Source of the DNA: Celeribacter persicus | GTDB taxonomy: Bacteria; Pseudomonadota; Alphaproteobacteria; Rhodobacterales; Rhodobacteraceae | DNA length: 34,972 bases | Assembly: GCF_003050785.1 (NCBI RefSeq) | Contig: NZ_QAOH01000022.1 | Location: 1-34,972 of the forward strand | Direction: 5' to 3' | Shown here: positions 7,987 to 26,992 of the stretch, in pieces | Layout: each line of letters begins with the position of its first letter | Numbering within the stretch: position 1 is the first letter of the stretch | Position numbers and translations under genes: made by a program | The notes under the pieces: model-generated | Seen by the model: only the letters and a program-made list of their open reading frames with translations | Databases searched by the model: none | What the model was told of the DNA's origin: nothing

Positions 7987-7996
7987 TGGTATACTA
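7987..7996. promoter_or_regulatory. GntR-type operator, copy 1 (SDR-TSUP unit)
   Basis: TGGTATACTA, in the context TATATGGTATACTAAAG, matches the palindrome found in front of five other regions of the window, including the GntR gene itself. It lies 146 bases upstream of the SDR start (leftward) and 414 bases upstream of the binding-protein gene (rightward); the SDR is the likelier target. The internal TATACT resembles a -10 element, so binding would compete with polymerase. Confidence 0.6.
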
Positions 7997-9909: not shown

Positions 9910-10000
9910 TCCTTCACGCATTTTGAGACGCATATCTTTCGCAGGCAGAGCGGCACGTCCGCTCTGTCCCACGCAAATACAGACGATATGGGGCGGACTT

Positions 10001-10921: not shown

Positions 10922-10924
10922 GCC

Positions 10925-11893: not shown

Positions 11894-11915
11894 CGGGTAG
11901 AGAAGGACGATAACA

Positions 11916-12944: not shown

Positions 12945-13969
12945 CCGATCAATCCAATCGTTTCGAGGCGGATCATGCCGTCGCAGCCGACATGCCGATC
13001 CTGTCTGTGCGCGGTCTGGGCGTCACCTTCGATGGGGAGCGCGAACGGCCCTTTGGCCCGCCAAAGAAAATCCAGGCGCTCGACAATATCACCTTTGATC
13101 TGGAGCGGGGTAAGACGCTTGGCCTTGTGGGAGAATCCGGCTCTGGCAAATCGACCCTCGGGCGCGCCATCCTGCGGCGGTTGCCGATCTCCGAGGGGCG
13201 AGTGATTTTCGACGGTCGGGATATTTCCAATGTCAAAGGCGAGGCGCTGCGCCGTCTCACCCGTGACATTCAACTGATCTTTCAGGACCCCTACACAAGC
13301 CTCAACCCGCGCATGAAAGTGCTCGAACTCATCGCTGAGCCTTTGCTGGTGCATGGGCTGGTCTCCTCTTTGGAAGAAGCCCGTGATCAGGTCGGCGAGC
13401 TGATGCGTCTGGTGAACCTGCCGCTCGATGCGCTGGATCGTTTCCCGCATGGCTTCTCTGGCGGTCAGCGTCAGAGGATCGGCATCGCCCGTGCGCTGGC
13501 GCTCAAACCACGGCTCATCATCGCCGACGAGCCGGTCTCGGCGCTCGATGTGTCGGTGCGGGCGCAGGTGGTGAACCTGATGCAGGATCTGCAACAGGAG
13601 CTTGGCCTGACCTATGTGTTCATCGCCCACGATCTTTCTGTCGTGCGTCATATTTCCCATGACATCGCGATCCTGCATCGCGGGCATATGGTCGAAATGG
13701 CGGAGCGCGATGCGCTTTATGACACGCCCGAGCATCCCTATACCAAAGTGCTTTTGTCCGCCGTGCCGGAACCCGATCCGGCGCTGCGACGCAATGGCGA
13801 TTGCGCGCTTGAGGCGCATCGTCCACCGGAGTTGAACCTGTCCGGGCCGGGATGCCGATATCGCGATTGTTGTGACAAATCCGGCGGGCATTGCCAGAGG
13901 GAGGCGCCGCCCTTCGCCAAGCATCGCGGTGGGCATTGGGCGGCCTGTTGGCATGTCTCCACAGATTGA
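12941..13969 (+). CDS. ABC importer ATPase, DppF type
   Basis: 342 residues from the ATG at 12941, which overlaps the previous stop and is preceded by a good GGAGG; a longer upstream reading has no support. Walker A GESGSGKSTLG, Q-loop QDPYTSLNPR, signature FSGGQRQRIGIARAL and Walker B LIIADEPVSALDVS are all intact. The C-terminal extension carries the cysteines of the DppF/OppF group (GCRYRDCCDKSGGHC). It is the last gene of the importer operon; a strong terminator follows. Confidence 0.93.
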   Translation: MTDQSNRFEADHAVAADMPILSVRGLGVTFDGERERPFGPPKKIQALDNITFDLERGKTLGLVGESGSGKSTLGRAILRRLPISEGRVIFDGRDISNVKGEALRRLTRDIQLIFQDPYTSLNPRMKVLELIAEPLLVHGLVSSLEEARDQVGELMRLVNLPLDALDRFPHGFSGGQRQRIGIARALALKPRLIIADEPVSALDVSVRAQVVNLMQDLQQELGLTYVFIAHDLSVVRHISHDIAILHRGHMVEMAERDALYDTPEHPYTKVLLSAVPEPDPALRRNGDCALEAHRPPELNLSGPGCRYRDCCDKSGGHCQREAPPFAKHRGGHWAACWHVSTD

Positions 13970-14044: not shown

Positions 14045-15682
14045 TTACCGGCCCAGTTTCGTGCCGTCCTTGCGCGGGTCCGAACCGGCGATCAGCCCAC
14101 CGTCTGGTCCGCGCATCACGCATTGCGCGCCCCCGAAATCGCTGCGCCCGCCCAACTCGCCCGCACCGTTGGCATCTTCGAATCCGGCAGCTTTGAGCGC
14201 TACGGCAAAGGCCGGATCGCTGCCGCTCTCCAACGCAATCTGGGTGTCGCTTTCAAGCCGCCAGCGCGGGGCGTTCATCGCCTCTTGGACATCCTGACCC
14301 CAGGCGGCGAGGCGCATCATCATCTGGATATGGCCCTGAGGCTGCATCAATCCGCCCACCACACCAAAGACGGCATGAAACCGACCGTCTTTCAACGCGG
14401 CAGCCGGGATCACTGTATGATAGGGCCGTTTGCCGCCCGCGACGCCGTTGATGTGACCGGGGGCGGAAAATCCGTGGCCACGGTTTTGCAGACAAATCCC
14501 AAGTTCCGGCACACCGATCCCCGATCCGAAGCGTTTGAACACGCTGCTCATGAGCGTCACGGCAAAGCCCTCGCGGTCGACAATGGCGGTGCAGACCGTG
14601 TTGCCGGACGGGTCCGCCACGGTTTTGCGCGCGTATTTCATCCCTTCGCGGGTGGCTTTGACGACCTCGACCATGCTCATCGGATCAGAGATCGGTAGAT
14701 CCATCGTATTGAGAACCTCCAGCGCCTTCAGCACCCCGATCCCATGGGTGTTGGGCGGACATTCGAGCACTTCGATGCCTTTGAACATGCGCCGCACCGG
14801 GCGGTCGTAAAAACCTTGATGGGATGCGAGGTCTTCTGTCGTCAACAAAGCACCGCGCGCCTTTGCGGCACGCTCAATCGCCTCTGCTCTTTCTCCTTTG
14901 TAAAACGCATCTGGCCCGTCTTTGGCGAGGGCGTCCAAAAGATCGGCAAGGGCCGGGTTTTGGAAGAGATCACCCGCCTTGGGAATGGCGTCGCCTTTGT
15001 AGATGGCATTTGAGGCCGGGTCGTTTTGAATAACCTGCGCGAAGATGCGCCATTCACGGGCACAAATCGGTGCGACCGCAAACCCCTCTCTGGCGAGTTT
15101 GGCGGCAGGCGCCAGAAGATCGGCAAAGGGCAGGCGGCCGAAACGCGCATGAAGATCGGCCCAGCCACGGGCCAGCCCGGGGACTGTGACGGAATAGGGG
15201 TGGCGTTCGGGGATTTTTTGCCCGGGCAGATCGGCGACGTGCTCTGCGGTGAGCGCGATGGGGCTTTTGCCGGTGCCATTATAGGTGAGAGGCGGCTCTC
15301 CCGGAGGCAATAGCATGGCAAGACTGTCGCCGCCCAGTCCAGTGGCCATGGGTTCGACCACGCCAAGGATTGCGTCTGCGGCGATGGCGGCATCCACTGC
15401 TGTGCCGCCTCGGCCGAGCATCTCCATGGCGGTCTGTGCGGCAAGAGGGTGGCCGGTCGCGACAGCTTCCGTCTTTGCACTCAGGCTTTTGCCAGAAACG
15501 GAGCGGTCGGGAGAGGGGGGCGAGGAGAACTCAGTTGAAGTCACTGGCGAAGTTACGGGGGGCGTCACGGGTGTGCGGTCCTTATTTTGGGCGTTTGTTT
15601 TGATCTTTTCTGACTCATTTTGCAGGGTTGCAGAGGAAAAGTCAGTATTTAGTATTTTTAAATGTGACCGAATATTTTGCAT
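14045..15682 (-). CDS. Gamma-glutamyltransferase family hydrolase
   Basis: 545 residues. The GGT fold starts near residue 70 (TEAVATGHPLAAQTAMEML, GGTAVDAAIAADAILGVVEP, GLGGDSLAML). The autoprocessing site is GNTVCTAIVDREG, with Thr362 as expected nucleophile and N-terminus of the small subunit, followed by KRFGSGIG and GGLMQPQGHIQ. Members cleave or transfer gamma-glutamyl groups or act as related N-acyl hydrolases. The first 70 residues are a polar, Thr/Pro/Ser-rich stretch with repeated VTxPVTS units and no clear signal peptide; the upstream ATG has no ribosome-binding site, so the true start may be an internal GTG. It diverges from the HDO operon across a region containing a GntR-type operator, so co-regulation is likely. 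Confidence 0.88.
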   Translation of the reverse strand: MQNIRSHLKILNTDFSSATLQNESEKIKTNAQNKDRTPVTPPVTSPVTSTEFSSPPSPDRSVSGKSLSAKTEAVATGHPLAAQTAMEMLGRGGTAVDAAIAADAILGVVEPMATGLGGDSLAMLLPPGEPPLTYNGTGKSPIALTAEHVADLPGQKIPERHPYSVTVPGLARGWADLHARFGRLPFADLLAPAAKLAREGFAVAPICAREWRIFAQVIQNDPASNAIYKGDAIPKAGDLFQNPALADLLDALAKDGPDAFYKGERAEAIERAAKARGALLTTEDLASHQGFYDRPVRRMFKGIEVLECPPNTHGIGVLKALEVLNTMDLPISDPMSMVEVVKATREGMKYARKTVADPSGNTVCTAIVDREGFAVTLMSSVFKRFGSGIGVPELGICLQNRGHGFSAPGHINGVAGGKRPYHTVIPAAALKDGRFHAVFGVVGGLMQPQGHIQMMMRLAAWGQDVQEAMNAPRWRLESDTQIALESGSDPAFAVALKAAGFEDANGAGELGGRSDFGGAQCVMRGPDGGLIAGSDPRKDGTKLGR

Positions 15683-15766
15683 AATTTTAAAAAATCATTA
15701 AATACCAGTATGATGCAATATTTTTTGAGTTTTTATATTTTTGCCCAGAAGAGTGGACGCTCTATT

Positions 15767-15776
15767 TGGTATACAG
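15767..15776. promoter_or_regulatory. GntR-type operator, copy 2 (HDO operon / GGT divergent region)
   Basis: TGGTATACAG, in TATTTGGTATACAGTATGG, is identical in its ten core bases to the copy in front of the GntR gene read on the other strand. It lies 100 bases before the HDO start and 85 bases before the upstream GGT start, in an AT-rich divergent region with no other gene. Confidence 0.65.
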
Positions 15777-15876
15777 TATGGTGAATTGAGGCCCAAAGAA
15801 TCTCGCATTCCCCTAACGCCGACAGGGTCTCACCAAGACGCATAACATTTGACGCAAAACCAACACGGAGACGGAA

Positions 15877-16608
15877 ATGGGCAAGGTCCTTAATCCCGAC
15901 GAACTTCGCACAGCACTTGAAACCGCCATTCGCGGCAACACCGCCAACGCTTCGCCGTTCAGCCTGGCCTGGGCCAGTGGCAAGCTGTCGCGCGCACATC
16001 TCGCGCGCTGGTGTGAGAACCATTATCACTATGTCGGCCCCTTCGCCGAATACCTCGCCTATGTCTACGCGCGTCTGCCCGCAGAGATGGAGGAGGCCAA
16101 GGATTTCATGTTGCAAAACATGTATGAAGAAGAGCTGGCCGCCGACCGCCACACCGATCTTCTGATCCGCTTTGGTGAGGCTTGCGGCACCACCGGCGAG
16201 CGCATGAAGAACATCGAGAATGCCAATGCGACCACCCGCGCGCTTCAGGCATGGTGCTATTCAACCGCGATGCGCGAAGACCCGATCGTCGCCATCGCCG
16301 GTCTTGTGGTCGGTCTCGAAAGCCAGGTGCCGTCGATCTACCGCAAACAGACCCCGACACTGCGTGAGAAATACGGGTTCACCGATGAAGAGGTCGAATT
16401 CTTTGATCTGCACATCGTCTCTGACGAAATTCACGGTGAACGTGGCTATCAGATCGTTCTGGAACATGCCCGCACCTATGAGCTTCAGCAGAAATGTCTG
16501 AAAATCTGTGAGGTCGGTGCCCAGATGCGTCTGCTCTACACGACGTCGCTCTACAACGATTACGTCGGTTCCGAGATCCCGCTCACCGAGCTGGGTCTGG
16601 CGGCCTGA
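15877..16608 (+). CDS. Haem-oxygenase-like diiron oxidase (HDO), CADD/PqqC/TenA fold
   Basis: 243 residues, all helical by composition, no signal peptide. A full set of candidate iron ligands is present with the spacing I recall for CADD: Glu85 and His92 (YEEELAADRH), Glu148 (GLESQVP), His179, Asp183 and His186 (DLHIVSDEIH). This separates it from cofactorless TenA and PqqC. HDO enzymes (CADD, UndA, BesC, SznF) activate O2 at a diiron centre for C-C cleavage, desaturation or N-oxygenation. The CADD self-sacrificed tyrosine region reads ASPFSLAW here, so a p-aminobenzoate role is unlikely. It heads an operon with two ferredoxins, an unknown small protein, an aldehyde dehydrogenase and a transporter, which points to a catabolic oxygenase. 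The reaction and substrate are unknown. Confidence 0.85.
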   Translation: MGKVLNPDELRTALETAIRGNTANASPFSLAWASGKLSRAHLARWCENHYHYVGPFAEYLAYVYARLPAEMEEAKDFMLQNMYEEELAADRHTDLLIRFGEACGTTGERMKNIENANATTRALQAWCYSTAMREDPIVAIAGLVVGLESQVPSIYRKQTPTLREKYGFTDEEVEFFDLHIVSDEIHGERGYQIVLEHARTYELQQKCLKICEVGAQMRLLYTTSLYNDYVGSEIPLTELGLAA

Positions 16609-16617
16609 TCCTGTCAC

Positions 16618-16643
16618 GAGAGGGCGGGGGCACCCGTCCTCTC
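16618..16643 (+). other. Intercistronic stem-loop after the HDO gene
   Basis: GAGAGGGCGG (16618-16627) can pair with CCGTCCTCTC (16634-16643), ten base pairs with one G-U, loop of six. There is no T-run, so a terminator is unlikely; a 3' mRNA-stabilising or processing hairpin between oxygenase and ferredoxin fits better. Confidence 0.5.
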
Positions 16644-16659
16644 CAAACCGGAAGAACCC

Positions 16660-16953
16660 ATGCCAAAAGTCACACTGCACAAGGGCGGTGAGGTGTTTGT
16701 CGACGACGTCGATCCGAACACCAACCTCGTCGTCCGCGCCGGGATCAAGAAATTTCCCTATCCCAATCTCGATTACAAATGCGGCATGGGGAAATGTTCG
16801 ACCTGCACCTGCCGTATCATCAGCGGCGGCGAGCATCTCGAAGCGCCGAACTGGAAGGAAAAACGCCAGTTGGGCGACAAGCTCGACGAAGGGTATCGCC
16901 TCGCCTGCCAGCTTTGGGTGTCCGAGGACATCGAGTTGACACAAGAGGTCTGA
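16660..16953 (+). CDS. [2Fe-2S] plant-type ferredoxin, first of two
   Basis: 97 residues. The cluster ligands are Cys41, Cys46 and Cys49 (CGMGKCSTC) and Cys83 (RLACQL), the C-x4-C-x2-C...C pattern of plant/adrenodoxin-like [2Fe-2S] proteins; an additional Cys51 stands next to the cluster. A small soluble electron carrier is expected. Lying 51 bases after the HDO gene, it is the obvious candidate to deliver electrons to the diiron centre, drawing them from the FAD reductase encoded at 21472-22515. It contains more acidic and aromatic residues than the second ferredoxin (FPYPNLDY before the cluster), so the two probably have different partners. Confidence 0.9.
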   Translation: MPKVTLHKGGEVFVDDVDPNTNLVVRAGIKKFPYPNLDYKCGMGKCSTCTCRIISGGEHLEAPNWKEKRQLGDKLDEGYRLACQLWVSEDIELTQEV

Positions 16954-16963
16954 GCCTGCCGGA

Positions 16964-16981
16964 CCCGCCGCATCAGGCGGG
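16964..16981 (+). other. Intercistronic stem-loop after the first ferredoxin
   Basis: CCCGCC (16964-16969), loop GCATCA, GGCGGG (16976-16981), followed by CCTTTCCCC. The tail is too weak for a proper terminator; partial termination or mRNA processing between the ferredoxin and the 97-residue protein is possible. Confidence 0.45.
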
Positions 16982-17030
16982 CCTTTCCCCGATCACACCC
17001 ATTTCTATGAGACAAAGACGAGGGACAGCC

Positions 17031-17324
17031 ATGTTCGTCATTCTGACCACGAAACCTGAAGAATTCCACACTGTCATGGGCGAGGGAGTCACCTCCGTCG
17101 AATCCTATGACTATATTTTCTACGGCCGCAAACGGGCCAATTTCACCATCGCCGAACTGGATGGCGTGGACCGGATCACCATCGTCGAAGATGCGCCGCC
17201 TCATATCACCAACAAAGTGCCGAGCAAGCTGTTCGAGAGCTTCGACACGCTCGAAGAGGCGCGCGACGAACTCAACACGCTGACCCATTACGGCAGCATG
17301 GATATCGAGCTGCGCCTCGTCTGA
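17031..17324 (+). CDS. Unrecognised 97-residue protein of the HDO operon
   Basis: Start at the ATG at 17031, preceded by AGGGACAG. The sequence begins MFVILTTKPEEFHTVMGEGV and contains DYIFYGRKRANFTIAELDGV and IVEDAPPHITNKVPSKLFES, ending MDIELRLV. It is soluble, acidic, has no cysteine and no signal peptide, and alternates short strands and helices, so it is not a third ferredoxin. I do not recognise the family. Being fixed between two ferredoxin genes in an oxygenase operon, it may be an accessory or effector component, like the small regulatory subunits of other diiron monooxygenases; that is an inference from position only. Confidence 0.75.
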   Translation: MFVILTTKPEEFHTVMGEGVTSVESYDYIFYGRKRANFTIAELDGVDRITIVEDAPPHITNKVPSKLFESFDTLEEARDELNTLTHYGSMDIELRLV

Positions 17325-17329
17325 GGCGC
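17312..17329 (+). other. Stem-loop spanning the stop of the 97-residue protein gene
   Basis: GCGCCTC (17312-17318), loop GTCT, GAGGCGC (17323-17329): seven perfect GC-rich pairs overlapping the stop codon. No T-run follows. It is the third hairpin in three consecutive gene junctions of this operon. Confidence 0.5.
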
Positions 17330-17366
17330 GCCGAGCTGACCGATAGAAACACAAAGCCGCGAGCCC

Positions 17367-17654
17367 ATGGACAAGATCAGCATTACATTCATCCCGAACG
17401 AGAACAAAACAATCTCCGTTGACAGCGGCAGCAATCTGTTGCGGGCCTCGCTGCGCGAAAAGGGAGGCATCCCCTTCAAATGCGGCGGTGGGTTCTGTGG
17501 CACATGTCGCTGCAAAATTGTCGAGGGGCTGGAGCATACTGACGATGTGAAAGCCAAGGAGCGCAAGCATCTGAGCGACGAGGATGTGGAGAACGGCTTT
17601 CGCATGGCCTGCCAGACCTTTGTCAGTGGCGATGTGAAAATCTCCTGGGGGTGA
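17367..17654 (+). CDS. [2Fe-2S] plant-type ferredoxin, second of two
   Basis: 95 residues. Ligands are Cys39, Cys44 and Cys47 (CGGGFCGTC) with Cys82 (RMACQT); as in the first ferredoxin an extra cysteine (Cys49) sits two residues after the third ligand. The glycine-rich ligand loop resembles the ferredoxin domains of ring-hydroxylating oxygenase reductases more than that of its neighbour does. Two ferredoxins in one operon with a single oxygenase could serve the HDO in series, or one could serve the aldehyde-oxidising or another oxygenase step. The start ATG is only weakly supported by an upstream ribosome-binding site. Confidence 0.9.
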   Translation: MDKISITFIPNENKTISVDSGSNLLRASLREKGGIPFKCGGGFCGTCRCKIVEGLEHTDDVKAKERKHLSDEDVENGFRMACQTFVSGDVKISWG

Positions 17655-17718
17655 TGGCCGGGCTGATGGTCCTCCTGCTCCGACGTCACAGAAACGCAAA
17701 AAGATCAAAGGGACAGAT

Positions 17719-19164
17719 ATGTCTTACATGAATTTCATCGGCGGGGATTGGGTTCCTGCCTCCTCGGGCGCGACGTTCGAGAACCGCAATCCGGCGGATC
17801 AGGGGGATCTCATCGGTCTGTTTCCCGATGGCGGTGAGGCAGATGTGGCCGCCGCCGTTGAAACGGTGTCGAATGCCTGGCCTGCATGGGCGGCAAAGGG
17901 CCCCGAGGCGCGCGCCGATGTGCTTTACAAGGCCGCCGATATCATTTCCTCGCGGATCGACAGCATCGCGGCAGAGCTGACCCGCGAAGAGGGTAAAACG
18001 CTGACCGAAGCGCGCAATGAGACCAGCCGGATTGCCGCGAATTTCCGGTTCTACGCGGGCGAGGCGCTTCGGCTCAAAGGAGAAAGTTTTCCGATGCCTG
18101 AGGGGCAGATTGCGCTGACGCTGCGCTCGCCCGTTGGCGTTGTCGCGGTGATCACGCCGTGGAATTTTCCGCTCTCTATGGCTGCGCGCAAGATCGCGCC
18201 GGCTCTGGCGGCGGGCAATGGTGTCATTTTCAAACCCTCCGAAATGACGCCGCTGATGGGGCAGCGCTTGGTCGAAGTGCTGCTTGATGCCGGTCTGCCG
18301 AAAGGGCTGATCGCGCTCATTCATGGGCGCGGGCCGACCGTGGGCAAGGCGATCACCTCGACGCCGGGGATTGATGCGCTCACCTTCACCGGCTCTTACG
18401 CGGTGGGGATGCAGATTGCGCAGGCGCTCACCACGGACACGCGCTGTCAGCTTGAGATGGGCGGCAAGAACGCCACCATCGTGTTGCAGGACGCCGATCT
18501 CGACCGGGCCGCCGCGATCATTCAGCGCGGGGCCTTCGGGTTGACGGGGCAGGCCTGTACCGGCACCAGCCGGGTTCTGGTGGCGCGCAAACACTATGAT
18601 GCGTTGATCGAGAAACTTACCGGCGTGGCCGAGGGGATCACGATTGGCGCAGGCACGCGTGAGGGGGTCAACATGGGGCCACTGGCGACCGAAGCGCAGC
18701 TCGACAAGGTCAAAGCCTATCTCGGTATCGCCACGCAGGAGGGGGGGCGGATCACCACGGGCGGCCTGCCGGAGACCTCCGCCGATCTGTCGAACGGGTT
18801 CTTTGTGCGCCCGACCGTGATTGCCGATGTGCCGACGGACAGTCGTCTTTTGCGTGACGAAATCTTCGCGCCCGTGGTCGCCGTCCGCGCCATCGAAGAC
18901 GTGGAGGAGGCCATCGAGATTGCGGATGACACGGAATACGGGCTTGCTGTCTCCGTTGTGTCCAATGACATGTCTTCCGTTTTGAAGATTGCGCAAAAAA
19001 CCCAGCACGGCGTCGTGAAGGTCAACAGCCCGACCACTGGCGTCGCCTTGAATGCGCCCTTCGGCGGCTTTAAACATTCCTCCAACCAAAGCGCGAAAGA
19101 GCAGGGCGGTGCGAATGTCATGGATTTCTATAGCCGTATCAAAGCCGTGTACTTGGGGGGCTGA
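17719..19164 (+). CDS. NAD(P)-dependent aldehyde dehydrogenase
   Basis: 481 residues, full-length ALDH. Catalytic Cys280 (GLTGQACTGTSR) and general base Glu246 (LEMGGKN) are present, with Asn149 (TPWNFP) and the cofactor segment FKPSE (Lys172), which often goes with NADP or dual use. The closest group I recognise is the alpha-ketoglutaric semialdehyde/succinic semialdehyde-type dehydrogenases, which oxidise short omega-carboxy aldehydes. In the HDO operon it would oxidise an aldehyde released by the oxygenase. If the pathway is lysine-derived, glutarate semialdehyde is a natural candidate, but nothing in the sequence proves it. Its stop directly abuts the start of the TSUP gene. Confidence 0.92.
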   Translation: MSYMNFIGGDWVPASSGATFENRNPADQGDLIGLFPDGGEADVAAAVETVSNAWPAWAAKGPEARADVLYKAADIISSRIDSIAAELTREEGKTLTEARNETSRIAANFRFYAGEALRLKGESFPMPEGQIALTLRSPVGVVAVITPWNFPLSMAARKIAPALAAGNGVIFKPSEMTPLMGQRLVEVLLDAGLPKGLIALIHGRGPTVGKAITSTPGIDALTFTGSYAVGMQIAQALTTDTRCQLEMGGKNATIVLQDADLDRAAAIIQRGAFGLTGQACTGTSRVLVARKHYDALIEKLTGVAEGITIGAGTREGVNMGPLATEAQLDKVKAYLGIATQEGGRITTGGLPETSADLSNGFFVRPTVIADVPTDSRLLRDEIFAPVVAVRAIEDVEEAIEIADDTEYGLAVSVVSNDMSSVLKIAQKTQHGVVKVNSPTTGVALNAPFGGFKHSSNQSAKEQGGANVMDFYSRIKAVYLGG

Positions 19165-19914
19165 ATGGATCTGATCCACGATCTGATCGGTGGCGATCTA
19201 TTGACGCTGCATTTTCTTGGGATGGTCGCCATGGTGTTTGTGGCGGCCATTCTACAGGGCGTCGGCGGGCTTGGCTTCGCCATGTTCTCCGCGCCGATCT
19301 CGGCACTGTTTTTCCCGGAAATGGCGCCCGGTCCTTTGCTGGTGCTTGGCGGCTGCCTCTCTGTCATGGTGGTGCTGCGCGAACGCTCTGCGATTGATTT
19401 CAAATCCGCAGGGACGATGATTTCGGGCCGTGTGATCGGCAATTTCATTGCGGTTTTCATCATGGCGATGCTCAGTGCCAACAGTTTCTATATCCTCTTT
19501 GCCGTGCTGATTCTGATCGGGGTGGCTTTGAGCTATAGCGGCTGGCGGATTGTCGCGAATTGGCGCACTTTGGGTTTTGCCGGGATCATGTCCGGCATCA
19601 TGGGGACGATCACCTCTTCGGGCGCGCCGCCCTATGCCATCGTGATGCAGAATACACCGCCTGCGACCCTGCGCTCGACGCTGAATTTCACATTCTTTTT
19701 CGGGGCGACGACGTCCTTGATCCTGCTGGCCTCGATCGGGCGGTTTGAACTGCGCCAACTCATGCTGGGGCTCTTGCTCTTTCCGGCCCTTGTGTTGGGA
19801 TTCACGGTCTCAACCCCTCTGGCCCGCCATGTCCCTAAAGAGATGATCCGCCATGTGCTTTTGGGCCTGTCTGCGCTCAGTGCCGTGGGGCTGCTTCTGC
19901 GAGCGCTTCTCTGA
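19165..19914 (+). CDS. TSUP (TauE/SafE) family membrane transporter, HDO operon
   Basis: 249 residues, about eight hydrophobic segments. The TSUP repeats are GVGGLGFAMFSAPISALFFP (about residues 32-51) and FAGIMSGIMGTITSSGAPPY (about 138-157). The ATG follows the ALDH stop with no gap, so translation is coupled and the transporter belongs to the HDO operon. It is quite different from the TSUP protein encoded at 6235-7062. It probably exports or imports an anionic pathway compound (carboxylate, sulfonate); direction and substrate are unknown. It is convergent with the GntR gene, four bases apart. Confidence 0.88.
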   Translation: MDLIHDLIGGDLLTLHFLGMVAMVFVAAILQGVGGLGFAMFSAPISALFFPEMAPGPLLVLGGCLSVMVVLRERSAIDFKSAGTMISGRVIGNFIAVFIMAMLSANSFYILFAVLILIGVALSYSGWRIVANWRTLGFAGIMSGIMGTITSSGAPPYAIVMQNTPPATLRSTLNFTFFFGATTSLILLASIGRFELRQLMLGLLLFPALVLGFTVSTPLARHVPKEMIRHVLLGLSALSAVGLLLRALL

Positions 19915-19918
19915 GAGA

Positions 19919-20566
19919 TCAGTCGGTTGCGGCCTCTGGCTCCACCGCATTATACACATGCCGAGAGGCCAGAATGGCGGCAAGCTCTTCGTCGCCCGCG
20001 ATCACCGCGCGTAGGATATCCGCATGTTCGCGCCAGGTTTCGCGCACTTTCACCGGGTCGTCCTGTTTGAACAGCATCGACGTTTGGTCACGCAGGGTGC
20101 GGATCAGGTCCTGAAGCGTCACATTGCCCGATACCTCGCCCAGGGCTGTGTGAAAAGCGTCATTATGGGCGCGCATTTCGCTAAAGTCGCCTTTCTCAAT
20201 ATCGGCTTCGCCTGCGGCAAGAACACGTTGCAGCGCCGTGATCCGGTCAGGATCCTTGCGACGCGCGGCGAGGCGGGCGTTGAGGGCTTCAAGTGTGGCG
20301 CGCACCTCGATCAGGTCCATCTTCTGATCCGCTGCGGGCATGGAGACCGTCGCGCCGCGGCGTGGAATGATCTTGACCAGCCCTTCGGCGGCGAGCTCAC
20401 GCAGCGCCTCGCGCACGGGCATGCGTGACACGCCCATTTCCTCTGAAATCCGGCCTTCGACAAGGCGGGTGCCCTGTTCGAACTCGCCATTCAGAATACG
20501 CTGTCTGAGCGCATCTTTGACCATCTTCGTCAAAGGTGTGTGTGCGTCGCCGATTGCCAAACTCAT
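19919..20566 (-). CDS. GntR-family (FCD subfamily) transcriptional regulator
   Basis: 215 residues. The winged helix-turn-helix covers about residues 10-75 (LRQRILNGEFEQGTRLVEGR, EMGVSRMPVREALRELAAEG, RGATVSMP). The all-helical FCD effector domain follows, with likely metal ligands in HNDAFHTAL, EHADIL and SRHVYNA. FCD regulators usually repress catabolic operons and release DNA on binding a carboxylate metabolite. A palindrome of the form TGGTATACNR lies 72 bases upstream of this gene and recurs before the HDO, HbpS-reductase, SDR and hydrolase-amidase units, so I infer that this protein is the autoregulated local master regulator. Confidence 0.92.
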   Translation of the reverse strand: MSLAIGDAHTPLTKMVKDALRQRILNGEFEQGTRLVEGRISEEMGVSRMPVREALRELAAEGLVKIIPRRGATVSMPAADQKMDLIEVRATLEALNARLAARRKDPDRITALQRVLAAGEADIEKGDFSEMRAHNDAFHTALGEVSGNVTLQDLIRTLRDQTSMLFKQDDPVKVRETWREHADILRAVIAGDEELAAILASRHVYNAVEPEAATD

Positions 20567-20637
20567 TATTTTGTCCTGTGTCTGCTCTTCTGCGCGTCTG
20601 CGTGTCGTGTTGTGGTTGTCGGTGAGGGCGCTTCATT

Positions 20638-20647
20638 CTGTATACCA
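20638..20647. promoter_or_regulatory. GntR-type operator, copy 3 (autoregulation of GntR)
   Basis: CTGTATACCA; on the minus strand TGGTATACAG, the same ten bases as the copy in front of the HDO operon. It lies 72 bases upstream of the GntR start, so it is placed for autoregulation. Confidence 0.65.
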
Positions 20648-20839
20648 GAGTCTCTTTAGCTTTGCCAAGCCCGGTGCGCGCATGGGTCATCTGGCCCTGT
20701 CTCACCGATGAAGACCGCGTGCAAGGTGCTGAATTTAAGGGGGTGGGTAGGCGGTGGGCTGTGCGGTTTGGTTATAGGGAGGTCGGTAAGGTTGTCGGAC
20801 TCTGGCCGGTTTGCGTATTGGTTACGGGAAGGCTTTAAA

Positions 20840-20849
20840 CGGTATACTA
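20840..20849. promoter_or_regulatory. GntR-type operator, copy 4 (upstream copy of HbpS operon)
   Basis: CGGTATACTA, followed by AAATTTAAG. It differs from the consensus at one base. It lies 95 bases before copy 5 and 145 bases before the HbpS-like gene; two sites on the same face region could allow co-operative binding or DNA looping. The 418 bases between the GntR and HbpS-like genes hold no other gene that I can see. Confidence 0.55.
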
Positions 20850-20934
20850 AAATTTAAGCACAACTGTTGATTTTATAGAAAAAAGCGCAATTTCGATTGA
20901 ATTTGACAGCTCGGCTCTTGGATATTTTGAGATA

Positions 20935-20944
20935 TGGTATACTA
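20935..20944. promoter_or_regulatory. GntR-type operator, copy 5 (promoter-proximal, HbpS operon)
   Basis: TGGTATACTA, in GATATGGTATACTAAAAAAG, 40 bases before the translation start. Ten core bases are identical to copy 1. The enclosed TATACT is a good -10 match, so binding would directly occlude the promoter; TTGACA at 20903-20908 is too far away to be its -35 at normal spacing. Confidence 0.65.
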
Positions 20945-20984
20945 AAAAAGACAACAACAAACGCACAACAAAAGAGATAGACCT

Positions 20985-21464
20985 TTGAAAACAGTTCTCA
21001 GACTGCAATCCGAAGAGGCGCGCGTCATGATGGCCGCGGCTGTTGAAAAATCCAAAGAAATCGGCGTTTTGGAGACCATCTGCATCGCAGATGACGGTGG
21101 TTTTCCGATTCTGATTGAGCGTATGGATGGGGCGCGGGTGACCGGGCCGCAAATCGCTTGGAACAAGGCGTTTACAGCGGCCACACATAAGCGCTCGACC
21201 CATCTGTTCAACAAGGCCCCCAATGGTCCGGCCCTGCCGGGAAACGAGGCCTTTGGTATCCAATTGTCCTTTGAAGGCAGGTTTGCGGTTTTTGTCGGCG
21301 GTTTTCCGATCGTTGTGGATGGTGAAGTGATCGGCGGCGTCGGACTTTCCGGCGGCAATGGCGATCAGGACACGGCTGCAGGTGTGGCAGCGCTTCAGGC
21401 TTTGGCGGATTTGCTCGCACCGCAGGGTCATGACGTCGTGGTTGCCGCCGATATCAAGAAGTGA
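20985..21464 (+). CDS. HbpS/GlcG-family protein
   Basis: 159 residues. The start is a TTG with only a weak AAGAGA-like site; it is favoured because it gives the complete family N-terminus (LRLQSEEARVMMAAAVEKSK), and the first ATG would remove the first strand. Family blocks are present: IADDGGFPILIERMDGARV, AWNKAFTAATHKRST, GGFPIVVDGEVIGGVGLSGG. HbpS binds haem and iron in Streptomyces; GlcG is an accessory protein of glycolate use, and many relatives sit in catabolic operons with no known function. Here it precedes the oxygenase reductase by seven bases, so a role around the redox system, such as iron or haem sensing or reductase accessory, is possible. Confidence 0.88.
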   Translation: MKTVLRLQSEEARVMMAAAVEKSKEIGVLETICIADDGGFPILIERMDGARVTGPQIAWNKAFTAATHKRSTHLFNKAPNGPALPGNEAFGIQLSFEGRFAVFVGGFPIVVDGEVIGGVGLSGGNGDQDTAAGVAALQALADLLAPQGHDVVVAADIKK

Positions 21465-21471
21465 GGCGGCC

Positions 21472-22515
21472 ATGACCATCATTCGTGCCCTTCATAAAAT
21501 CGAAAACGAAGATCAGGCCGCTCTGGCACAGGTGACATTGGCCGAGACCGGTGACGCGTTCAGCGTCGAGCCCCATGAAACCATTTTGGCCGCAGCATTG
21601 AACGCAGGCGTGGATCTGGCGCATGACTGCAAGACCGGGTTTTGCGGGTCCTGTCGCATTCGTCTGCTGGACGGAGAGGTCGTCTATGATGAGGAGCCTC
21701 TCGGTTTGAGTGAAGAAGAGCGGGGTTGTGGCTTTGCTCTGGCGTGCCAGGCGCGTGCGCGGATGAACCTGAAAATCTCGGCGGAGTTGATGCCGACGGA
21801 CCGGGTGGAGCCGGTGGAGATTCTGTCCGAAGTGATCTCCGTGACGCAGGTCTGCGATGACATCATCCGGTTGCGGTTGCGCCCTGAGGGCGAGATGCCT
21901 GCTTTTCAGCCCGGCCAATATATCAATGTGGTGACCGAAAGCGGGGCGACGCGGTCGTTTTCCATTGCGTCGTCCCCCTCCGAGGCTGAGATCGACCTGC
22001 ACATCCGGGTGATCCCCGGCGGGATGTATACCGATGGTGTGCTCAAGGGGCTGATCCCTGGCGCGAAGGTCCATCTGCATGGGCCGCATGGGCTGTTTTG
22101 CCTACATGCCGAGGATTTTCGCCCTCTGCTTTTGGTGGCGACCGGGACGGGAATTGCGCCACTGCGCGCGATGCTGGCCGCTTTGAAGGAAGACCGCGAT
22201 GGACCGCCGGTGGCACTCTATTGGGGGATGCGCGAGGAACGCGAACTCTATCTCGCCGAAGAGATTGCCGCTTTGGGGGCGGAGCTGGAGGATTTCAGCT
22301 TTGTGCCTGTGCTGTCACGTGCGCCAGAGGGCGTGCATCGCCGGGGCTATGTCCAAGACGCGGTGCTGGCCGATCTGCCGGATCTGTCGGAACATGCGAT
22401 CTATCTGTGCGGCTCGCCGGAGATGATTGCTGAGGCGCGTGGGCGCTTTTTGGAAGCCGGGGCAAGCGTCAACCACATCTACGCCGATAGCTTTCACTTC
22501 GCGCATAATCTCTAA
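21472..22515 (+). CDS. Ferredoxin-FAD-NAD(P)H oxygenase reductase
   Basis: 347 residues from the ATG at 21472; an earlier in-frame reading overlaps the preceding gene. Three domains in order: [2Fe-2S] ferredoxin (Cys53, Cys58, Cys61: CKTGFCGSC, and Cys92), FAD-binding barrel (about 110-205, with RSFSIASSP), and NAD(P)-binding domain (about 210-347, LLLVATGTGIAPLRAM and YLCGSPEMI). This is the class of BenC and related electron-transfer components of bacterial oxygenases. No terminal oxygenase is encoded beside it, but the HDO operon lies 5 kb away under the same operator type, so it probably reduces the two free ferredoxins. Confidence 0.92.
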   Translation: MTIIRALHKIENEDQAALAQVTLAETGDAFSVEPHETILAAALNAGVDLAHDCKTGFCGSCRIRLLDGEVVYDEEPLGLSEEERGCGFALACQARARMNLKISAELMPTDRVEPVEILSEVISVTQVCDDIIRLRLRPEGEMPAFQPGQYINVVTESGATRSFSIASSPSEAEIDLHIRVIPGGMYTDGVLKGLIPGAKVHLHGPHGLFCLHAEDFRPLLLVATGTGIAPLRAMLAALKEDRDGPPVALYWGMREERELYLAEEIAALGAELEDFSFVPVLSRAPEGVHRRGYVQDAVLADLPDLSEHAIYLCGSPEMIAEARGRFLEAGASVNHIYADSFHFAHNL

Positions 22516-22554
22516 CCACCCCAAAAGGGTCAAAAAATAGGGAGGCCGGGGTCC

Positions 22555-23598
22555 ATGTCCTCGTCCGTATGGAAGTATTTTCACTGGAGTTTCGCGATCA
22601 CGACCGTCGGCATCGCGCTCTGTTTCTGGCTTGGCTGGGTCTATACCGGACAGATGTCAGGCATGATGGCCTTTGCGCTGATCGGGCTAATCCTGACCGT
22701 GCTGGAAATCTCGCTGAGTTTCGACAATGCCATCGTCAACGCCAATAAGCTCGAAGAGATGGATGATGTCTGGCGGCGGCGCTTTCTGACCTGGGGCATT
22801 CTGATCGCGGTCTTCGGAATGCGCATCATCTTTCCGCTCGCGGTGGTCTCCATCGCGGCTCATATCGGCCCCATCGAGGCGGTCAAACTCGCCGCAGGCC
22901 ACCCCGCCGAATACGCCCGGCTGATCGGTGAGGCGCATTTGTCGATCTCGGCTTTCGGGGGGACGTTTTTGATGATGGTGGCGCTGAATTATTTCATCGA
23001 CCCCGAAAAGGAGGTCGACTGGCTGCGCCCGCTGGAAGATTTGTTGCGCAAATGGGCCTCTGTGCGGGGTCTTGCCATCGGCCTGGTGCTTTTGATCGTG
23101 CTGGTCTTTTCCAGCCTGATCGACGCGCCGGAGCGCGGCACCTTCATGTATGCCGCCATGGCAGGTCTCGTGACCTTCATTGCCGTGGAAACGCTCGGCC
23201 ATATTCTCGACAGCGGTGCCGCTTTGGCAAAAGGCGGATTGGGCGCTTTTCTCTATCTCGAAGTGCTCGATGCGTCGTTCAGTTTCGATGGGGTGATCGG
23301 GGCCTTTGCCTTGACCCAGAACCTGTTCCTGATTGCCATCGGGCTTGGCATCGGCGCGATGTATGTGCGCTCGATGACGATCATGCTGGTCGAAAAGCAA
23401 ACCCTGACCGAGTTTCGCTATCTCGAACACGGGGCCTTCTATTCGATCCTTGTCCTGTCTTGCGTGATGTTTGCCCAAAGCCTTGTGCATATCCCGGAGG
23501 TGATCACCGGGCTCATCGGCGCGACATTTATTGCGCTCTCTCTGGTCTCCTCGGTGCGCTACAACCGCAGACGCCGTGAGGAGGCCGTCACCGCTTAG
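22555..23598 (+). CDS. TerC/DUF475-family integral membrane protein
   Basis: 347 residues with about nine hydrophobic segments and a good GGAGG site upstream. The TerC-type acidic motif FDNAIVNANKLEEMDD (about residues 56-71) is repeated in the second half as DASFSFDGVIGAFALT (about 239-254), the conserved Asp/Asn-in-membrane pattern. TerC relatives are linked to metal (manganese, tellurite) handling; DUF475 itself has no firm function. It is 39 bases after the reductase gene and so is part of the HbpS operon. It might supply or protect metal for the diiron oxidase, by inference only. Its 3' end overlaps the convergent amidase gene by 11 bases. Confidence 0.85.
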   Translation: MSSSVWKYFHWSFAITTVGIALCFWLGWVYTGQMSGMMAFALIGLILTVLEISLSFDNAIVNANKLEEMDDVWRRRFLTWGILIAVFGMRIIFPLAVVSIAAHIGPIEAVKLAAGHPAEYARLIGEAHLSISAFGGTFLMMVALNYFIDPEKEVDWLRPLEDLLRKWASVRGLAIGLVLLIVLVFSSLIDAPERGTFMYAAMAGLVTFIAVETLGHILDSGAALAKGGLGAFLYLEVLDASFSFDGVIGAFALTQNLFLIAIGLGIGAMYVRSMTIMLVEKQTLTEFRYLEHGAFYSILVLSCVMFAQSLVHIPEVITGLIGATFIALSLVSSVRYNRRRREEAVTA

Positions 23599-24454
23599 GC
23601 CGGCCCTCTTCCCGGTCTTGATCTGAGGCGCTTTCTCGGTTTTTCCCTTGGCCGGCGAAGCGCCTCATTTTTTTGTTTGAAATGGATGTCGCGACATCTG
23701 CGGGGCGAAAATCCGCCCCTTTTTCTGAGCGCGCCTCGGGCGGATAGTCGGACAGCTCCGGCAGATCGACGATCAGCAGAGCTTCCACCGTGTCCGCCCG
23801 CTCAATTGCGCCCCCGTCCGGCCCTGCCACGGTCGAGCCGCCGCCAAAGTCCAAGCCATTGTCCGCACCGCAATAATTCGCATAGGCGACAAATCCCCTG
23901 ATTTCATGGGCGCGGGCAGGCACCAGTATGTTTTGCACATGCTCATAGCCTTTGGGATTGGCGGTCGGGACAAAAATCACTTCGGCCCCGGCCTGTGCGA
24001 GGCTGGCCGCATGTCCGGGGAACTCGATGTCATAGCAAATCAGCAAGCCGCATCTGCGCCCGCAGAGATCAAAGGGCGGGGCAAGCTCTGTCCCATGAGA
24101 AAAGCTCGCGTGCTCCATCTCGCCGAAAAGCTGAACCTTGCGGTAATGCGACACAATCGTGCCAAAACGGTCCAGACATGTGGCGGCGTTATAAACGTCC
24201 GACCCGTCGCGTTCCGCCCAGCCGAGAACCAGGGCGCAGCCGATCTCCTTGATCATGGCGCGAAGGGACTGCATCCGGGGGCCGTCCAAGGCCTCTGCCT
24301 CGCTGCGATGTCTTTGCGGCTGGTTGTAGCCGGGGAAGAACAGCTCAGGCGTGATCAGCACATCGACCCCGGCCTTGCTGGCGGCCAGAAGCGCCTTGCG
24401 TAGTGAGGCAAGTCCGTTGGACGAGGGCGACGTCTGATATAAGGCGATGCGCAT
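23588..24454 (-). CDS. Nitrilase-superfamily amidohydrolase, DavA-like
   Basis: 288 residues. The catalytic triad is Glu37 (TPELFFPGYN), Lys106 (YRKVQLFGE) and Cys140 (LLICYDIEFPG). The blocks VPTANPKGYEHV and AYANYCGADNGLDFGG match from memory the Pseudomonas 5-aminovaleramidase DavA, which hydrolyses 5-aminovaleramide to 5-aminovalerate. A linear amide of an omega-amino or omega-guanidino acid is therefore the likely substrate. The last 30 residues are a charged tail (KKMRRFAGQGKNRES) overlapping the convergent TerC-like gene. It is the last gene of the hydrolase-AraC-amidase operon, and so falls under the GntR-type operator at 26400. Confidence 0.88.
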   Translation of the reverse strand: MRIALYQTSPSSNGLASLRKALLAASKAGVDVLITPELFFPGYNQPQRHRSEAEALDGPRMQSLRAMIKEIGCALVLGWAERDGSDVYNAATCLDRFGTIVSHYRKVQLFGEMEHASFSHGTELAPPFDLCGRRCGLLICYDIEFPGHAASLAQAGAEVIFVPTANPKGYEHVQNILVPARAHEIRGFVAYANYCGADNGLDFGGGSTVAGPDGGAIERADTVEALLIVDLPELSDYPPEARSEKGADFRPADVATSISNKKMRRFAGQGKNRESASDQDREEGRPKR

Positions 24455-24468
24455 GGACGTTCCTGACC

Positions 24469-25470
24469 CTAGGTCCGGGACTGGCGCCAGCTGCGTGCCG
24501 CCATGCCAAAATGTTCCCGAAACCGTGTGCTCAGATGGGCCGGGCTGGAATAGCCGCAGTCATAGGAAATCTCTGCCAAGCTGCGATCCGTATGTGTGAT
24601 GAGGCAGACCGCCTGTTCAAACCGCATCTGCCGGAGACAGTCGAACACGGTCATGCCGGTTTCCTCGCGAAAGGCCTTTGTCAGGGTCACATGGCTGACA
24701 TTGAGCTCATACGAGATTTGCGACAGTGACAGCCGTTCCGAAAGGTGTTCGGCCATGTAGGCCCGGGCCTGCGAGACAAGGGTGCTGCGGTCGGACGAAT
24801 AGGACGTGAAGCGTTTGGCGTCGATTTCCTCAAGCACATGACCGATGAGGGCGTGGCATTGACCCTCCTTGCGGATCATGGATCGGGAACTGCCGCCCGT
24901 GTCGAAAAGTGAGCCAAGCGCGTATTGCGCGGGGGTCGACAGGTGCAGACGGTAAAATCGACCGGATTGAGAGAAGCTTTCCTCAAGGCAGAGGCTCATC
25001 TGACGGGGCAGGTTCTCGGGGCAAAGGGTGAAGACGATATTCGTACAGCCCGTCTCCTGGGACACAACGCGATGGAGTGGACGTACGCCCGGTCTGTAGG
25101 CCCAGATCTGCCCGCGCTTTATGGTATGTGTTGCCACCTTGTTTTGCGGCGCAAGTGTCATGCTGCCGGAGAGATTTATGACGAAAATGATCTGATCTTC
25201 GGGGCGTCGAATATCCGCGATATGATCGCGCTCTGGCGGAAAGAGACTGTGCGCTGCCGTGATCCCATGTGAAATCCTGAGGATGTTGACGCGCTGCGCA
25301 TCACGGCCATTGGTCATCGCGATATTAGCAAGCGTTCCGGTGTCTCTGGGCCAGAGCTGGGTAGGTTCGATGAACATGGTGATATGACGTCCGGCGCTGG
25401 GATTTCCTTCCATCGTGACGGCCTGGGCGAGCCTGTCAAGCGCAGGGGAGACCTCTCTCCTGCGCGCCAT
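24469..25470 (-). CDS. AraC-family transcriptional regulator
   Basis: 333 residues. The N-terminal ligand domain resembles the AraC-binding-like type (LSGSMTLAPQNKVATH, IWAYRPGVRPLHR). The C-terminal double helix-turn-helix is complete: first helix pair LSLSQISYELNVSHVTLTKA (about 245-264), then SLAEISYDCGYSSPAHLSTR (about 297-316), followed by FREHFG. Such proteins mostly activate catabolic operons. It is encoded between the alpha/beta hydrolase (37-base gap) and the amidase (14-base gap), so it is probably made together with them; a second layer of control over the pathway is implied. Confidence 0.92.
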   Translation of the reverse strand: MARRREVSPALDRLAQAVTMEGNPSAGRHITMFIEPTQLWPRDTGTLANIAMTNGRDAQRVNILRISHGITAAHSLFPPERDHIADIRRPEDQIIFVINLSGSMTLAPQNKVATHTIKRGQIWAYRPGVRPLHRVVSQETGCTNIVFTLCPENLPRQMSLCLEESFSQSGRFYRLHLSTPAQYALGSLFDTGGSSRSMIRKEGQCHALIGHVLEEIDAKRFTSYSSDRSTLVSQARAYMAEHLSERLSLSQISYELNVSHVTLTKAFREETGMTVFDCLRQMRFEQAVCLITHTDRSLAEISYDCGYSSPAHLSTRFREHFGMAARSWRQSRT

Positions 25471-25507
25471 GTTTTCTTATGGTTTTTAAGGCTTTTGCGG
25501 TGAATTT

Positions 25508-26332
25508 CTATGCGGTTTCCAAATGCGATTTGACCGCGTCTGTGACCGCTTCGGGATGCGAGATATGCATCCCATGACCCGCACCGCCGATCCGGCGGAT
25601 GACTGCATTGGGCAGGCGTTCTGAGATCTGTTGGATGACGGCCGTATAGGCCGGAAGCGTGGCGTCCCCGGTCATGAGTGTGATCTGACCGGGAAACCCC
25701 GACAGCGCGCTGACGTTGACCGCCAGGCGATCCGGGTCACGAAACTGATCGAGCCAGGTATGCGCATTGGCAAGGATTGTCGCGCGGGCCTCGGCGTCGA
25801 ATACCTTGTGCCAGGCATTCTCCCCAAAGGCGACCTGTTCGATGAACAGCTTCGCGCCCTCCTCGATATGACCCTCTTCGATCAATGCGGCGGCCTGTTT
25901 CATCAGACCGCCTGCCTCGCGTTTGAGGGCTTCGTTTTCGTCTGTCAAAAGACCAAAAACCGGCGGCTCCAAAAGCACAAGCGAGCGCACCCGGTCCGGG
26001 TAGCGGCTGGCGAGCACTATGGATACGTTGGCGCCGTAGGAATGGCCGACGACATGGGCCGTTTCAATATCGAGATGGTCAAGAAGCGCTATGACATCCG
26101 CGACATCCTCGCTCAGACGACCCTGGCCTTCGGGGGCAGAGCTTTGGCTGTGTCCGCGGCGGTCATAACGCAGAAGGGGCCGGTCTGTGAGGCCTTTTGC
26201 AAGCCCGTCCCAGCTTCGGTGATCGTCCCATGACCCGTGTATACAAATAAGCGGAATGTCGTCATTCTGGGCTGGGGGGAGATAGGCAAGGCTGAAATCC
26301 TCAAAGTCGATTTTATCCATTATATTCTGCAT
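25508..26332 (-). CDS. Alpha/beta hydrolase
   Basis: 274 residues, soluble. The nucleophile elbow is VVGHSYGAN (Ser98); the oxyanion segment is CIHGSWDDHRSW (about 30-41), and the catalytic histidine lies in GGAGHGMHISHPE near the C-terminus. The fold includes typical esterases, lactonases, and C-C bond hydrolases such as meta-cleavage enzymes; the sequence does not decide among them. It is the first gene of a leftward operon whose start lies 68 bases from a GntR-type operator. It therefore probably belongs to the same pathway as the HDO, hydrolysing an ester, lactone or cleaved ring product. Confidence 0.88.
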   Translation of the reverse strand: MQNIMDKIDFEDFSLAYLPPAQNDDIPLICIHGSWDDHRSWDGLAKGLTDRPLLRYDRRGHSQSSAPEGQGRLSEDVADVIALLDHLDIETAHVVGHSYGANVSIVLASRYPDRVRSLVLLEPPVFGLLTDENEALKREAGGLMKQAAALIEEGHIEEGAKLFIEQVAFGENAWHKVFDAEARATILANAHTWLDQFRDPDRLAVNVSALSGFPGQITLMTGDATLPAYTAVIQQISERLPNAVIRRIGGAGHGMHISHPEAVTDAVKSHLETA

Positions 26333-26399
26333 GTTGAGATTCCTTTTTCTCTCATTTCATGCTGTGAGAATAATGTATTGCGAGAGGTGTGAAATAAAA

Positions 26400-26409
26400 C
26401 AGTATACCA
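26400..26409. promoter_or_regulatory. GntR-type operator, copy 6 (hydrolase-AraC-amidase operon)
   Basis: CAGTATACCA; on the minus strand TGGTATACTG, with TATACT placed as a leftward -10 about 70 bases before the hydrolase start. It matches the consensus of the other five copies. Confidence 0.65.
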
Positions 26410-26992
26410 AAATTGGTGTGATGACCGTGAATGCGTTTGGGAAGCTGAGAGCTTTATTAAATATCTTTATTTTTCATGTGGTTGTGATGATTTTCAGATT
26501 TGCGGAAAAAACTCTCGTACGTGATGTGAGGGGCTGGAATTTGATGTGACGCGCGGCAAAACCGCCAAAATGCGGTTTTGGAGGTCACGTCGAATGGATT
26601 TTGCGAAAATCTAATAAAATATTGATTTTCAAAATAAAAAATGAAACTTCCTGCGTCGCACCTTGCCGATCAGAAGGGGGGTGGAGCGCAGCGCGCCCAG
26701 CTCTTTAGGTTTTCGGAGAAACAGGCTCTTTCTGACCATCAAGCCGATGCTGTTTTCTGCACTCTTTCCGGACATGAAACTCCCGTGCCTTACGGTGCGG
26801 CAGATGAATGTTGTCTGTGGGTTTTTTCGCCGGTTTTTGGGCAATTTCTTAGGTCGCGGGACGGGTGTTTCTTACCCTGATGACAGAGCGCGCGACGCTT
26901 GAGGTCAGGATAAAACCCGGACCGCAATGGCAATTATCGCGCCTTTCAAAAACGACGCACATACCACCGCACACACCAAAGACAGGGTCATC
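26410..26992. other. AT-rich intergenic region before the orphan binding protein
   Basis: No gene could be supported on either strand; the short open frames here have no family resemblance and no good starts. One clear structure exists: CAAAACCGC (26557-26565), loop CAAAAT, GCGGTTTTG (26572-26580), nested within GTGAC/GTCAC arms. No T-run follows, so it is more likely an operator or leader structure than a terminator. No copy of the GntR-type palindrome was found after 26410 in this gap. Confidence 0.4.

What the first reader, a model, noticed from the sequence alone, without database searches (positions are those of the whole stretch)
15683..26410. Candidate undescribed HDO-ferredoxin catabolic oxygenase system
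Seen: one operon encodes a haem-oxygenase-like diiron oxidase with a full ligand set (Glu85, His92, Glu148, His179, Asp183, His186), two [2Fe-2S] ferredoxins, an unknown 97-residue protein, an aldehyde dehydrogenase and a TSUP transporter. A second operon encodes a ferredoxin-FAD-NAD reductase, an HbpS/GlcG-like protein and a TerC-like protein; a third encodes an alpha/beta hydrolase and a DavA-like amidase. Known: characterised HDO enzymes (CADD, UndA, BesC, SznF) are mostly biosynthetic and studied without dedicated redox chains. Inference: here an HDO works as a multicomponent catabolic oxygenase, NAD(P)H to reductase to ferredoxins to HDO, making an aldehyde from an amine- or amide-containing substrate.
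Basis: partly seen in the sequence, partly recalled or inferred. Interest (0 to 1): 0.85.

Follow-up and report, generated by a model that had tools for sequence, protein, structure and literature searches.

The report
Dipicolinic-acid (dip) oxygenase gene cluster
These genes look like a bacterial system for degrading dipicolinic acid, a chemical abundant in bacterial spores; the gene cluster is already described, but its oxygen-using enzyme appears to belong to an enzyme family not known to work with ferredoxins and a small helper protein.

Summary
But the system is probably not undescribed. [quoted passage not shown] DipR, Jiang 2024). I saw only those titles; roles of DipF, DipG and the ferredoxins are recalled. 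The oxygenase then most likely 3-hydroxylates DPA; it does not make an aldehyde from an amine or amide.

What I add: (1) the DipD-like protein is an HDO, nearest CADD by sequence. (2) A 97-residue protein between the ferredoxins co-occurs with the HDO (61 of 62 HDO genomes, among 250 searched; [quoted passage not shown] (3) A GTATAC site precedes 74 of 82 HDO copies; 6 of 7 whole-genome matches to an extended, post hoc form lie in this window, suggesting one regulon.

Against: the reductase lies nearby in only 42 of 76 loci; the third operon is not conserved. Substrate and effector role are untested.

The parts
15877..16608 (+). HDO, DipD-like oxygenase component (243 aa)
   Evidence: PF14518 2.4e-34; six ligands invariant in 86 of 86 rows; model pLDDT 88.1 but residues 87-89 under 50, close to ligands E85 and H92; phmmer best CADD 3.4e-15
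16660..16953 (+). Fd1, [2Fe-2S] ferredoxin
   Evidence: Fer2 1.3e-8; CX4CX2C at Cys41-49 plus Cys83
17031..17324 (+). sp97, candidate effector protein (97 aa)
   Evidence: no Pfam or NCBIfam match; model pLDDT 92.2; no Foldseek match at E<=0.001; no Cys in the window protein, no conserved Cys column; co-occurs with HDO
17367..17654 (+). Fd2, [2Fe-2S] ferredoxin
   Evidence: Fer2 5.5e-15; CX4CX2C at Cys39-47 plus Cys82
17719..19164 (+). aldehyde dehydrogenase, perhaps for 2-oxoglutarate semialdehyde
   Evidence: Aldedh 3.2e-152; best NCBIfam models 2,5-dioxovalerate and 2-oxoglutarate-semialdehyde dehydrogenase, both below their cut-offs; nearest PDB chains have other substrates
19165..19914 (+). 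TSUP-type exporter/transporter
   Evidence: TauE 3.1e-21; in 44 of 76 loci
19919..20566 (-). GntR/FCD (FadR-type) regulator, DipR-like
   Evidence: GntR and FCD domains; in 68 of 76 loci
20985..21464 (+). HbpS-like protein, DipF-like
   Evidence: PF03928 4.4e-32; in 72 of 76 loci
21457..22515 (+). Fer2-FAD-NAD reductase, DipG-like
   Evidence: in 42 of 76 loci
14045..15682 (-). gamma-glutamyltransferase-family (Ntn) amidase, divergent from HDO
   Evidence: G_glu_transpept 7.6e-105; in 15 of 76 loci
7077..7928 (-). short-chain dehydrogenase, likely regulon member
   Evidence: operator 61 bp upstream
8410..13969 (+). peptide/opine-type ABC importer (binding protein, two permeases, two ATPases), possible substrate uptake; names by reading
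   Evidence: homologues of binding protein and permeases next to the cluster in 6 of 76 loci; nearest strong operator is 415 bp upstream
7982..8001 (+). predicted operator, SDR/importer promoter region
   Evidence: 19.9 bits
15762..15781 (+). predicted operator, amidase/HDO divergent promoter
   Evidence: 23.3 bits
20633..20652 (-). predicted operator before GntR gene
   Evidence: 12.9 bits
20835..20854 (+). predicted operator before HbpS gene
   Evidence: 17.6 bits
20930..20949 (+). predicted operator before HbpS gene
   Evidence: 17.1 bits
26395..26414 (-). predicted operator, 70 bp before the alpha/beta hydrolase gene
   Evidence: 18.9 bits

Best explanation
This is a dip-type gene cluster for catabolism of dipicolinic acid (pyridine-2,6-dicarboxylate). 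Inferred chain: NAD(P)H reduces the FAD/[2Fe-2S] reductase, electrons pass through the two small [2Fe-2S] ferredoxins to the diiron site of the HDO, which activates O2 and hydroxylates carbon 3 of dipicolinate. sp97 probably binds the HDO or its complex with ferredoxin and gates O2 activation (effector role, speculative). HbpS-like (DipF) is an accessory of unknown action. Later steps (speculative): ring opening by an enzyme not identified here, the ALDH oxidising a C5 semialdehyde to 2-oxoglutarate, and the Ntn amidase cleaving the C2/N fragment; C7 = C5 + C2 fits. The GntR/FadR regulator acts at GTATAC sites before the operons. Shown here: gene content, conservation, ligands, co-occurrence, repeated sites. 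Published but seen here as titles only: dipD is needed for the first step of DPA catabolism; DipR is a GntR/FadR repressor of a dip cluster. Not shown here: substrate, metal, electron path, effector role, operator binding.
Confidence: 0.82

Rival explanations
1. Same multicomponent HDO oxygenase, but in this Celeribacter lineage acting on another pyridine or aromatic carboxylate, or on a conjugate of DPA taken up by the peptide/opine-type importer.
For: The window version has a peptide/opine-type importer and SDR near the cluster where Alcaligenaceae have another transporter, and an operator before an extra hydrolase; its ALDH is only 43-47% identical to that of most betaproteobacterial loci, against 70-75% among Aminobacter, Kaistia, Mangrovicoccus and Corticibacter loci.
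Against: The HDO stays 76-83% identical to those lineages and the GTATAC site is shared.
Confidence: 0.1
2. One reading: an HDO that converts an amine or amide (opine, lysine-derived compound) to an aldehyde, followed by ALDH and amidase.
For: ALDH next to HDO in the window; nearby amino-acid-type oxidase and importer genes (by reading); other HDOs act on amino acids.
Against: Amidase and hydrolase of the third operon are not conserved; ALDH is absent from 16 of 76 loci; the dip match gives a different reaction.
Confidence: 0.05
3. The HDO is not the catalyst of the oxygenation (for example a PqqC-like, metal-free protein) and another protein of the cluster does it.
For: PqqC is a close fold match.
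Against: All six metal ligands invariant; sequence far nearer CADD (3.4e-15) than PqqC (1.9e-6); no other oxygenase family was found among the cluster proteins scanned.
Confidence: 0.03

Closest known systems
dip cluster of Alcaligenes faecalis JQ135 (Mu et al. 2022, doi 10.1128/aem.00360-22; Jiang et al. 2024, doi 10.1093/nar/gkae728; titles only seen)
   Same: GntR/FadR regulator, oxygenase, heme-binding-protein-like gene, ferredoxin reductase, ferredoxins; order in L016/L021 fits the recalled gene letters.
   Different: Here a peptide/opine-type importer lies beside the cluster and operators precede extra operons; the window ALDH is of a different subtype.
CADD / self-sacrificing p-aminobenzoate synthase (HDO)
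   Same: Closest solved relatives by sequence and fold; same six ligands (recalled for CADD; 3H/3C motif).
   Different: NCBIfam CADD model 85.4 bits against a cut-off of 200; ferredoxin and catabolic context.
MboA/MboB (mangotoxin HDO with dedicated redox partner; PMC13185094, passages read)
   Same: HDO with a flavin/[2Fe-2S] NAD(P)H reductase as partner.
   Different: Biosynthetic desaturation of a peptide; the passages tell of a reductase alone, no small ferredoxins or effector.
Ferritin-like multicomponent monooxygenases (sMMO, toluene monooxygenases)
   Same: Works-like: reductase, ferredoxin-type carrier, diiron oxygenase and perhaps a redox-inactive effector (effector role in that class).
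   Different: Different fold: HDO bundle rather than ferritin-like.

Membership tests
HDO superfamily | heme-oxygenase-like helical fold | tested here: met
HDO superfamily | 3 His / 3 carboxylate ligand set | tested here: met
   E85 H92 E148 H179 D183 H186 in 86 of 86 rows
HDO superfamily | bound dimetal site and O2 activation | not testable with these tools
   needs purified protein
CADD family (TIGR04305) | curated model cut-off 200 bits | tested here: not met
   85.4 bits
PqqC (TIGR02111) | curated model cut-off 240 bits | tested here: not met
   34 bits
dip cluster (DPA catabolism) | GntR/FadR-family regulator gene in the cluster | tested here: met
   GntR + FCD domains; feature from title seen
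dip cluster (DPA catabolism) | oxygenase with heme-binding-like protein, reductase and ferredoxins (recalled) | tested here: met
   the defining list itself is recalled
dip cluster (DPA catabolism) | sequence identity of HDO to JQ135 DipD | not testable with these tools
   papers not held; no named Alcaligenes record found
dip cluster (DPA catabolism) | 3-hydroxylation of DPA, induction by DPA | not testable with these tools
   bench test needed
2-oxoglutarate-semialdehyde dehydrogenase (NF042993) | curated cut-off 770 bits | tested here: not met
   477.6 bits (window) and 572.9 bits (L129), though second-best and best model respectively
multicomponent monooxygenase effector (works-like only) | fold shared with a known effector | tested here: inconclusive

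The most novel reading that the evidence does not exclude
DipD-type enzymes are multicomponent HDO ring hydroxylases: two ferredoxins plus sp97 as a redox-inactive effector, a case of the HDO fold independently acquiring the architecture (reductase, ferredoxin, effector, diiron oxygenase) known from ferritin-like bacterial multicomponent monooxygenases, with aromatic C-H hydroxylation as a new HDO reaction.
Probability: 0.35. Interest if true: 0.82.

Novelty: new member of a known kind. Interest (0 to 1): 0.55.

Why it matters
DPA is a major component of bacterial spores (recalled), so its breakdown matters for carbon and nitrogen turnover. If the oxygenase is an HDO, a known degradation cluster supplies what the HDO field appears to lack: a ring-hydroxylating, ferredoxin-fed member with a possible effector. 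[quoted passage not shown] The question whether HDOs can use an effector would become directly testable in vitro.

Tried and rejected
Homarine catabolism was the first idea; the paper search gave nothing to test it with and the dip match replaced it. Searches for print on HDO plus ferredoxin plus catabolism and on 3-hydroxydipicolinate or DPA monooxygenase gave no relevant paper; some searches were the other searches on this question. I therefore cannot say whether the HDO nature of DipD is in print: the two dip papers themselves are not held.

Oxamate amidohydrolase (HpxW) for the amidase: not supported in particular; entry 5hft (recalled as HpxW; the table names it gamma-glutamyltranspeptidase) scores below 2nlz even if its two chains are added. 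Known fold for sp97: none found among the matches returned; absence of a match is no proof. Distant HDO relatives as members of the same system: the nearest other in the 289-genome class sample (G359, 44% identity) has HbpS and GntR beside it but no Fd1, sp97 or Fd2 hit in the 18 kb taken, and its genome has no sp97. A second HDO copy as a separate enzyme: pairs in L007, L012, L013, L014 and L064 are about 89-100% alike, so no clear split of function. TerC, nitrilase-type amidase, AraC-like gene and alpha/beta hydrolase as core parts: rejected on conservation.

Limits of the operator result: the pattern YGGTATACWRWW was written after seeing the window's sites, so its concentration in the window is partly built in (the reversed control pattern gave 0). 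The 82 HDO copies are related and not independent (49 distinct sites), one short copy (L014) was left out, and the random windows (68 of 1560 with a site) can include true sites. The eight copies without a site are all from Acetobacteraceae/Roseomonadaceae. Sites were found upstream of only 8 of 74 HbpS genes, 20 of 72 GntR genes and 0 of 6 binding-protein genes. Four of the ten GTATAC in the window are not at promoters: three inside genes of my list (10732, 22026, 26239) and one at 33986 inside an open ORF at the window's end.
Full report
Observation. Every gene named in the finding is present at its place, and the six HDO ligands E85, H92, E148, H179, D183 and H186 are invariant in 86 of 86 aligned rows, window and own-genome copy included. 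No Rfam family or tRNA was found in the window.

Distribution. A scan of named genomes gave 278 confirmed stretches; the best 80 were kept as 76 loci, 76-95% identical to the window HDO, in alpha- and betaproteobacteria such as Celeribacter, Aminobacter, Bradyrhizobium, Achromobacter and Cupriavidus. In the window's own family 2 of 295 genomes matched, the window's own among them. In a class sample 47 of 289 matched, but the next best after the window was 44% identical. In the family of a Paenalcaligenes locus 72 of 250 matched, of which 62 strongly, at 75% identity or more.

Conserved unit. Of the 76 loci, counts by tblastn at over half coverage are: Fd1 75, sp97 75, Fd2 75 (always in the order Fd1-sp97-Fd2 on one strand), HDO directly before that trio on the same strand 69, HbpS 72, GntR 68, ALDH 60, TSUP 44, reductase 42, amidase 15, TerC 3, nitrilase-type amidase 3, AraC-like and alpha/beta hydrolase 0. 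The one locus without the trio (L011) lies on the same contig as L045, which has it. A 514-aa protein of unknown family with a transporter-like start occurs in 38 of 80 loci (no Pfam match). So the core is HDO + Fd1 + sp97 + Fd2 + HbpS with a GntR regulator. The reductase is common but not universal close by, which weakens the idea of one fixed redox chain.

What it is. [quoted passage not shown] The title of Mu et al. 2022 (seen in a reference list) calls dipD a novel monooxygenase gene essential for initial DPA catabolism in A. faecalis JQ135. The title of Jiang et al. 2024 (seen in a reference list) calls DipR a GntR/FadR-family repressor of a widespread dip cluster. I recall from the 2022 abstract that DipF is heme-binding, DipG a ferredoxin reductase, further genes ferredoxins, that 18O2 labelling showed the oxygen comes from O2, and that DipD resembled no known oxygenase. 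Neither paper is held, so this identification rests on titles, recall and gene order, not on sequence comparison.

sp97. It is confidently modelled (pLDDT 92.2, mainly beta with one helix) but matched no known structure at Foldseek E<=0.001 and no Pfam or NCBIfam family. The window protein has no cysteine; 32 of 47 rows have none and no column has Cys in a fifth of rows, so it is no ferredoxin. In 250 genomes strong HDO and sp97 occur together in 61, HDO alone in one (G610) and sp97 alone in one (G775). In the class sample only the window's own genome has sp97, and four genomes with 33-44% HDO relatives lack it. A cluster-free protein bound so strictly to one diiron oxygenase, coded between its ferredoxins, is what an effector would look like; this is inference.

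Regulation. GTATAC occurs 10 times in the window against 0.88 expected (0 of 100 shuffles reach 10). It lies 33-127 bp upstream of 74 of 82 HDO copies that have 250 bp of upstream DNA, against 68 of 1560 random windows; the eight misses are all Acetobacteraceae/Roseomonadaceae. The extended pattern YGGTATACWRWW, written after seeing the sites, has 7 matches in the 4.3-Mb genome, 6 of them in this window. They lie 61 bp before the SDR gene (and 415 bp before the importer's binding-protein gene), between amidase and HDO, before GntR, twice before HbpS, and 70 bp before the alpha/beta hydrolase (519 bp before the second binding-protein gene). I infer one regulon of the GntR protein; inclusion of the importer is uncertain because of the distance.

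Downstream steps. The ALDH is nearest to models of 2-oxoglutarate-semialdehyde-type dehydrogenases but below their cut-offs, and nearest PDB chains are other ALDHs. C7 DPA could yield 2-oxoglutarate (C5) and oxalate or oxamate (C2), as old work on DPA reported (recalled). No ring-cleaving enzyme was identified.

Verdict. Observation confirmed; mechanism (multicomponent, catabolic HDO) partly supported; novelty and substrate claims corrected. New member of a known cluster, with an enzyme-family assignment and an effector hypothesis that I did not find in the literature that I could search.

Noticed in passing
window 2292-6219: Genes that look like a DadA-type oxidase, a flavin amine oxidase and an aspartate dehydrogenase (by reading) precede the cluster; a DadA-like and an AspDH-like hit turned up in one of 76 loci each, the amine oxidase in none.
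   Followed up: partly
window 8410-9909 and 26927-28510: Two similar-looking extracellular binding proteins (by reading) lie either side of the oxygenase operons; the second was not found in any of the 76 loci.
   Followed up: partly
window 31144-34972: ORFs at the right end look like transposition-type genes (an integrase-like ORF runs off the window; by reading only), so the cluster may lie beside a mobile element.
   Followed up: no
L079 (Caballeronia sp. SBC2 plasmid pSBC2-4, record 276139-300867): The oxygenase cluster lies on a plasmid predicted mobilizable, with ISNCY transposases nearby.
   Followed up: no
L007, L012, L013, L014, L064: Two HDO copies within about 10 kb, 89-100% alike; in the Aminobacter pairs one copy sits with ferredoxins and ALDH, the other with HbpS and reductase.
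   Followed up: partly
L128-L130 and other loci cluster 18: An ornithine-cyclodeaminase/mu-crystallin family gene follows Fd2 in some loci (10 of 80 loci hold one); best NCBIfam models are cyclic-imine reductases, below cut-off.
   Followed up: partly
   Followed up: partly
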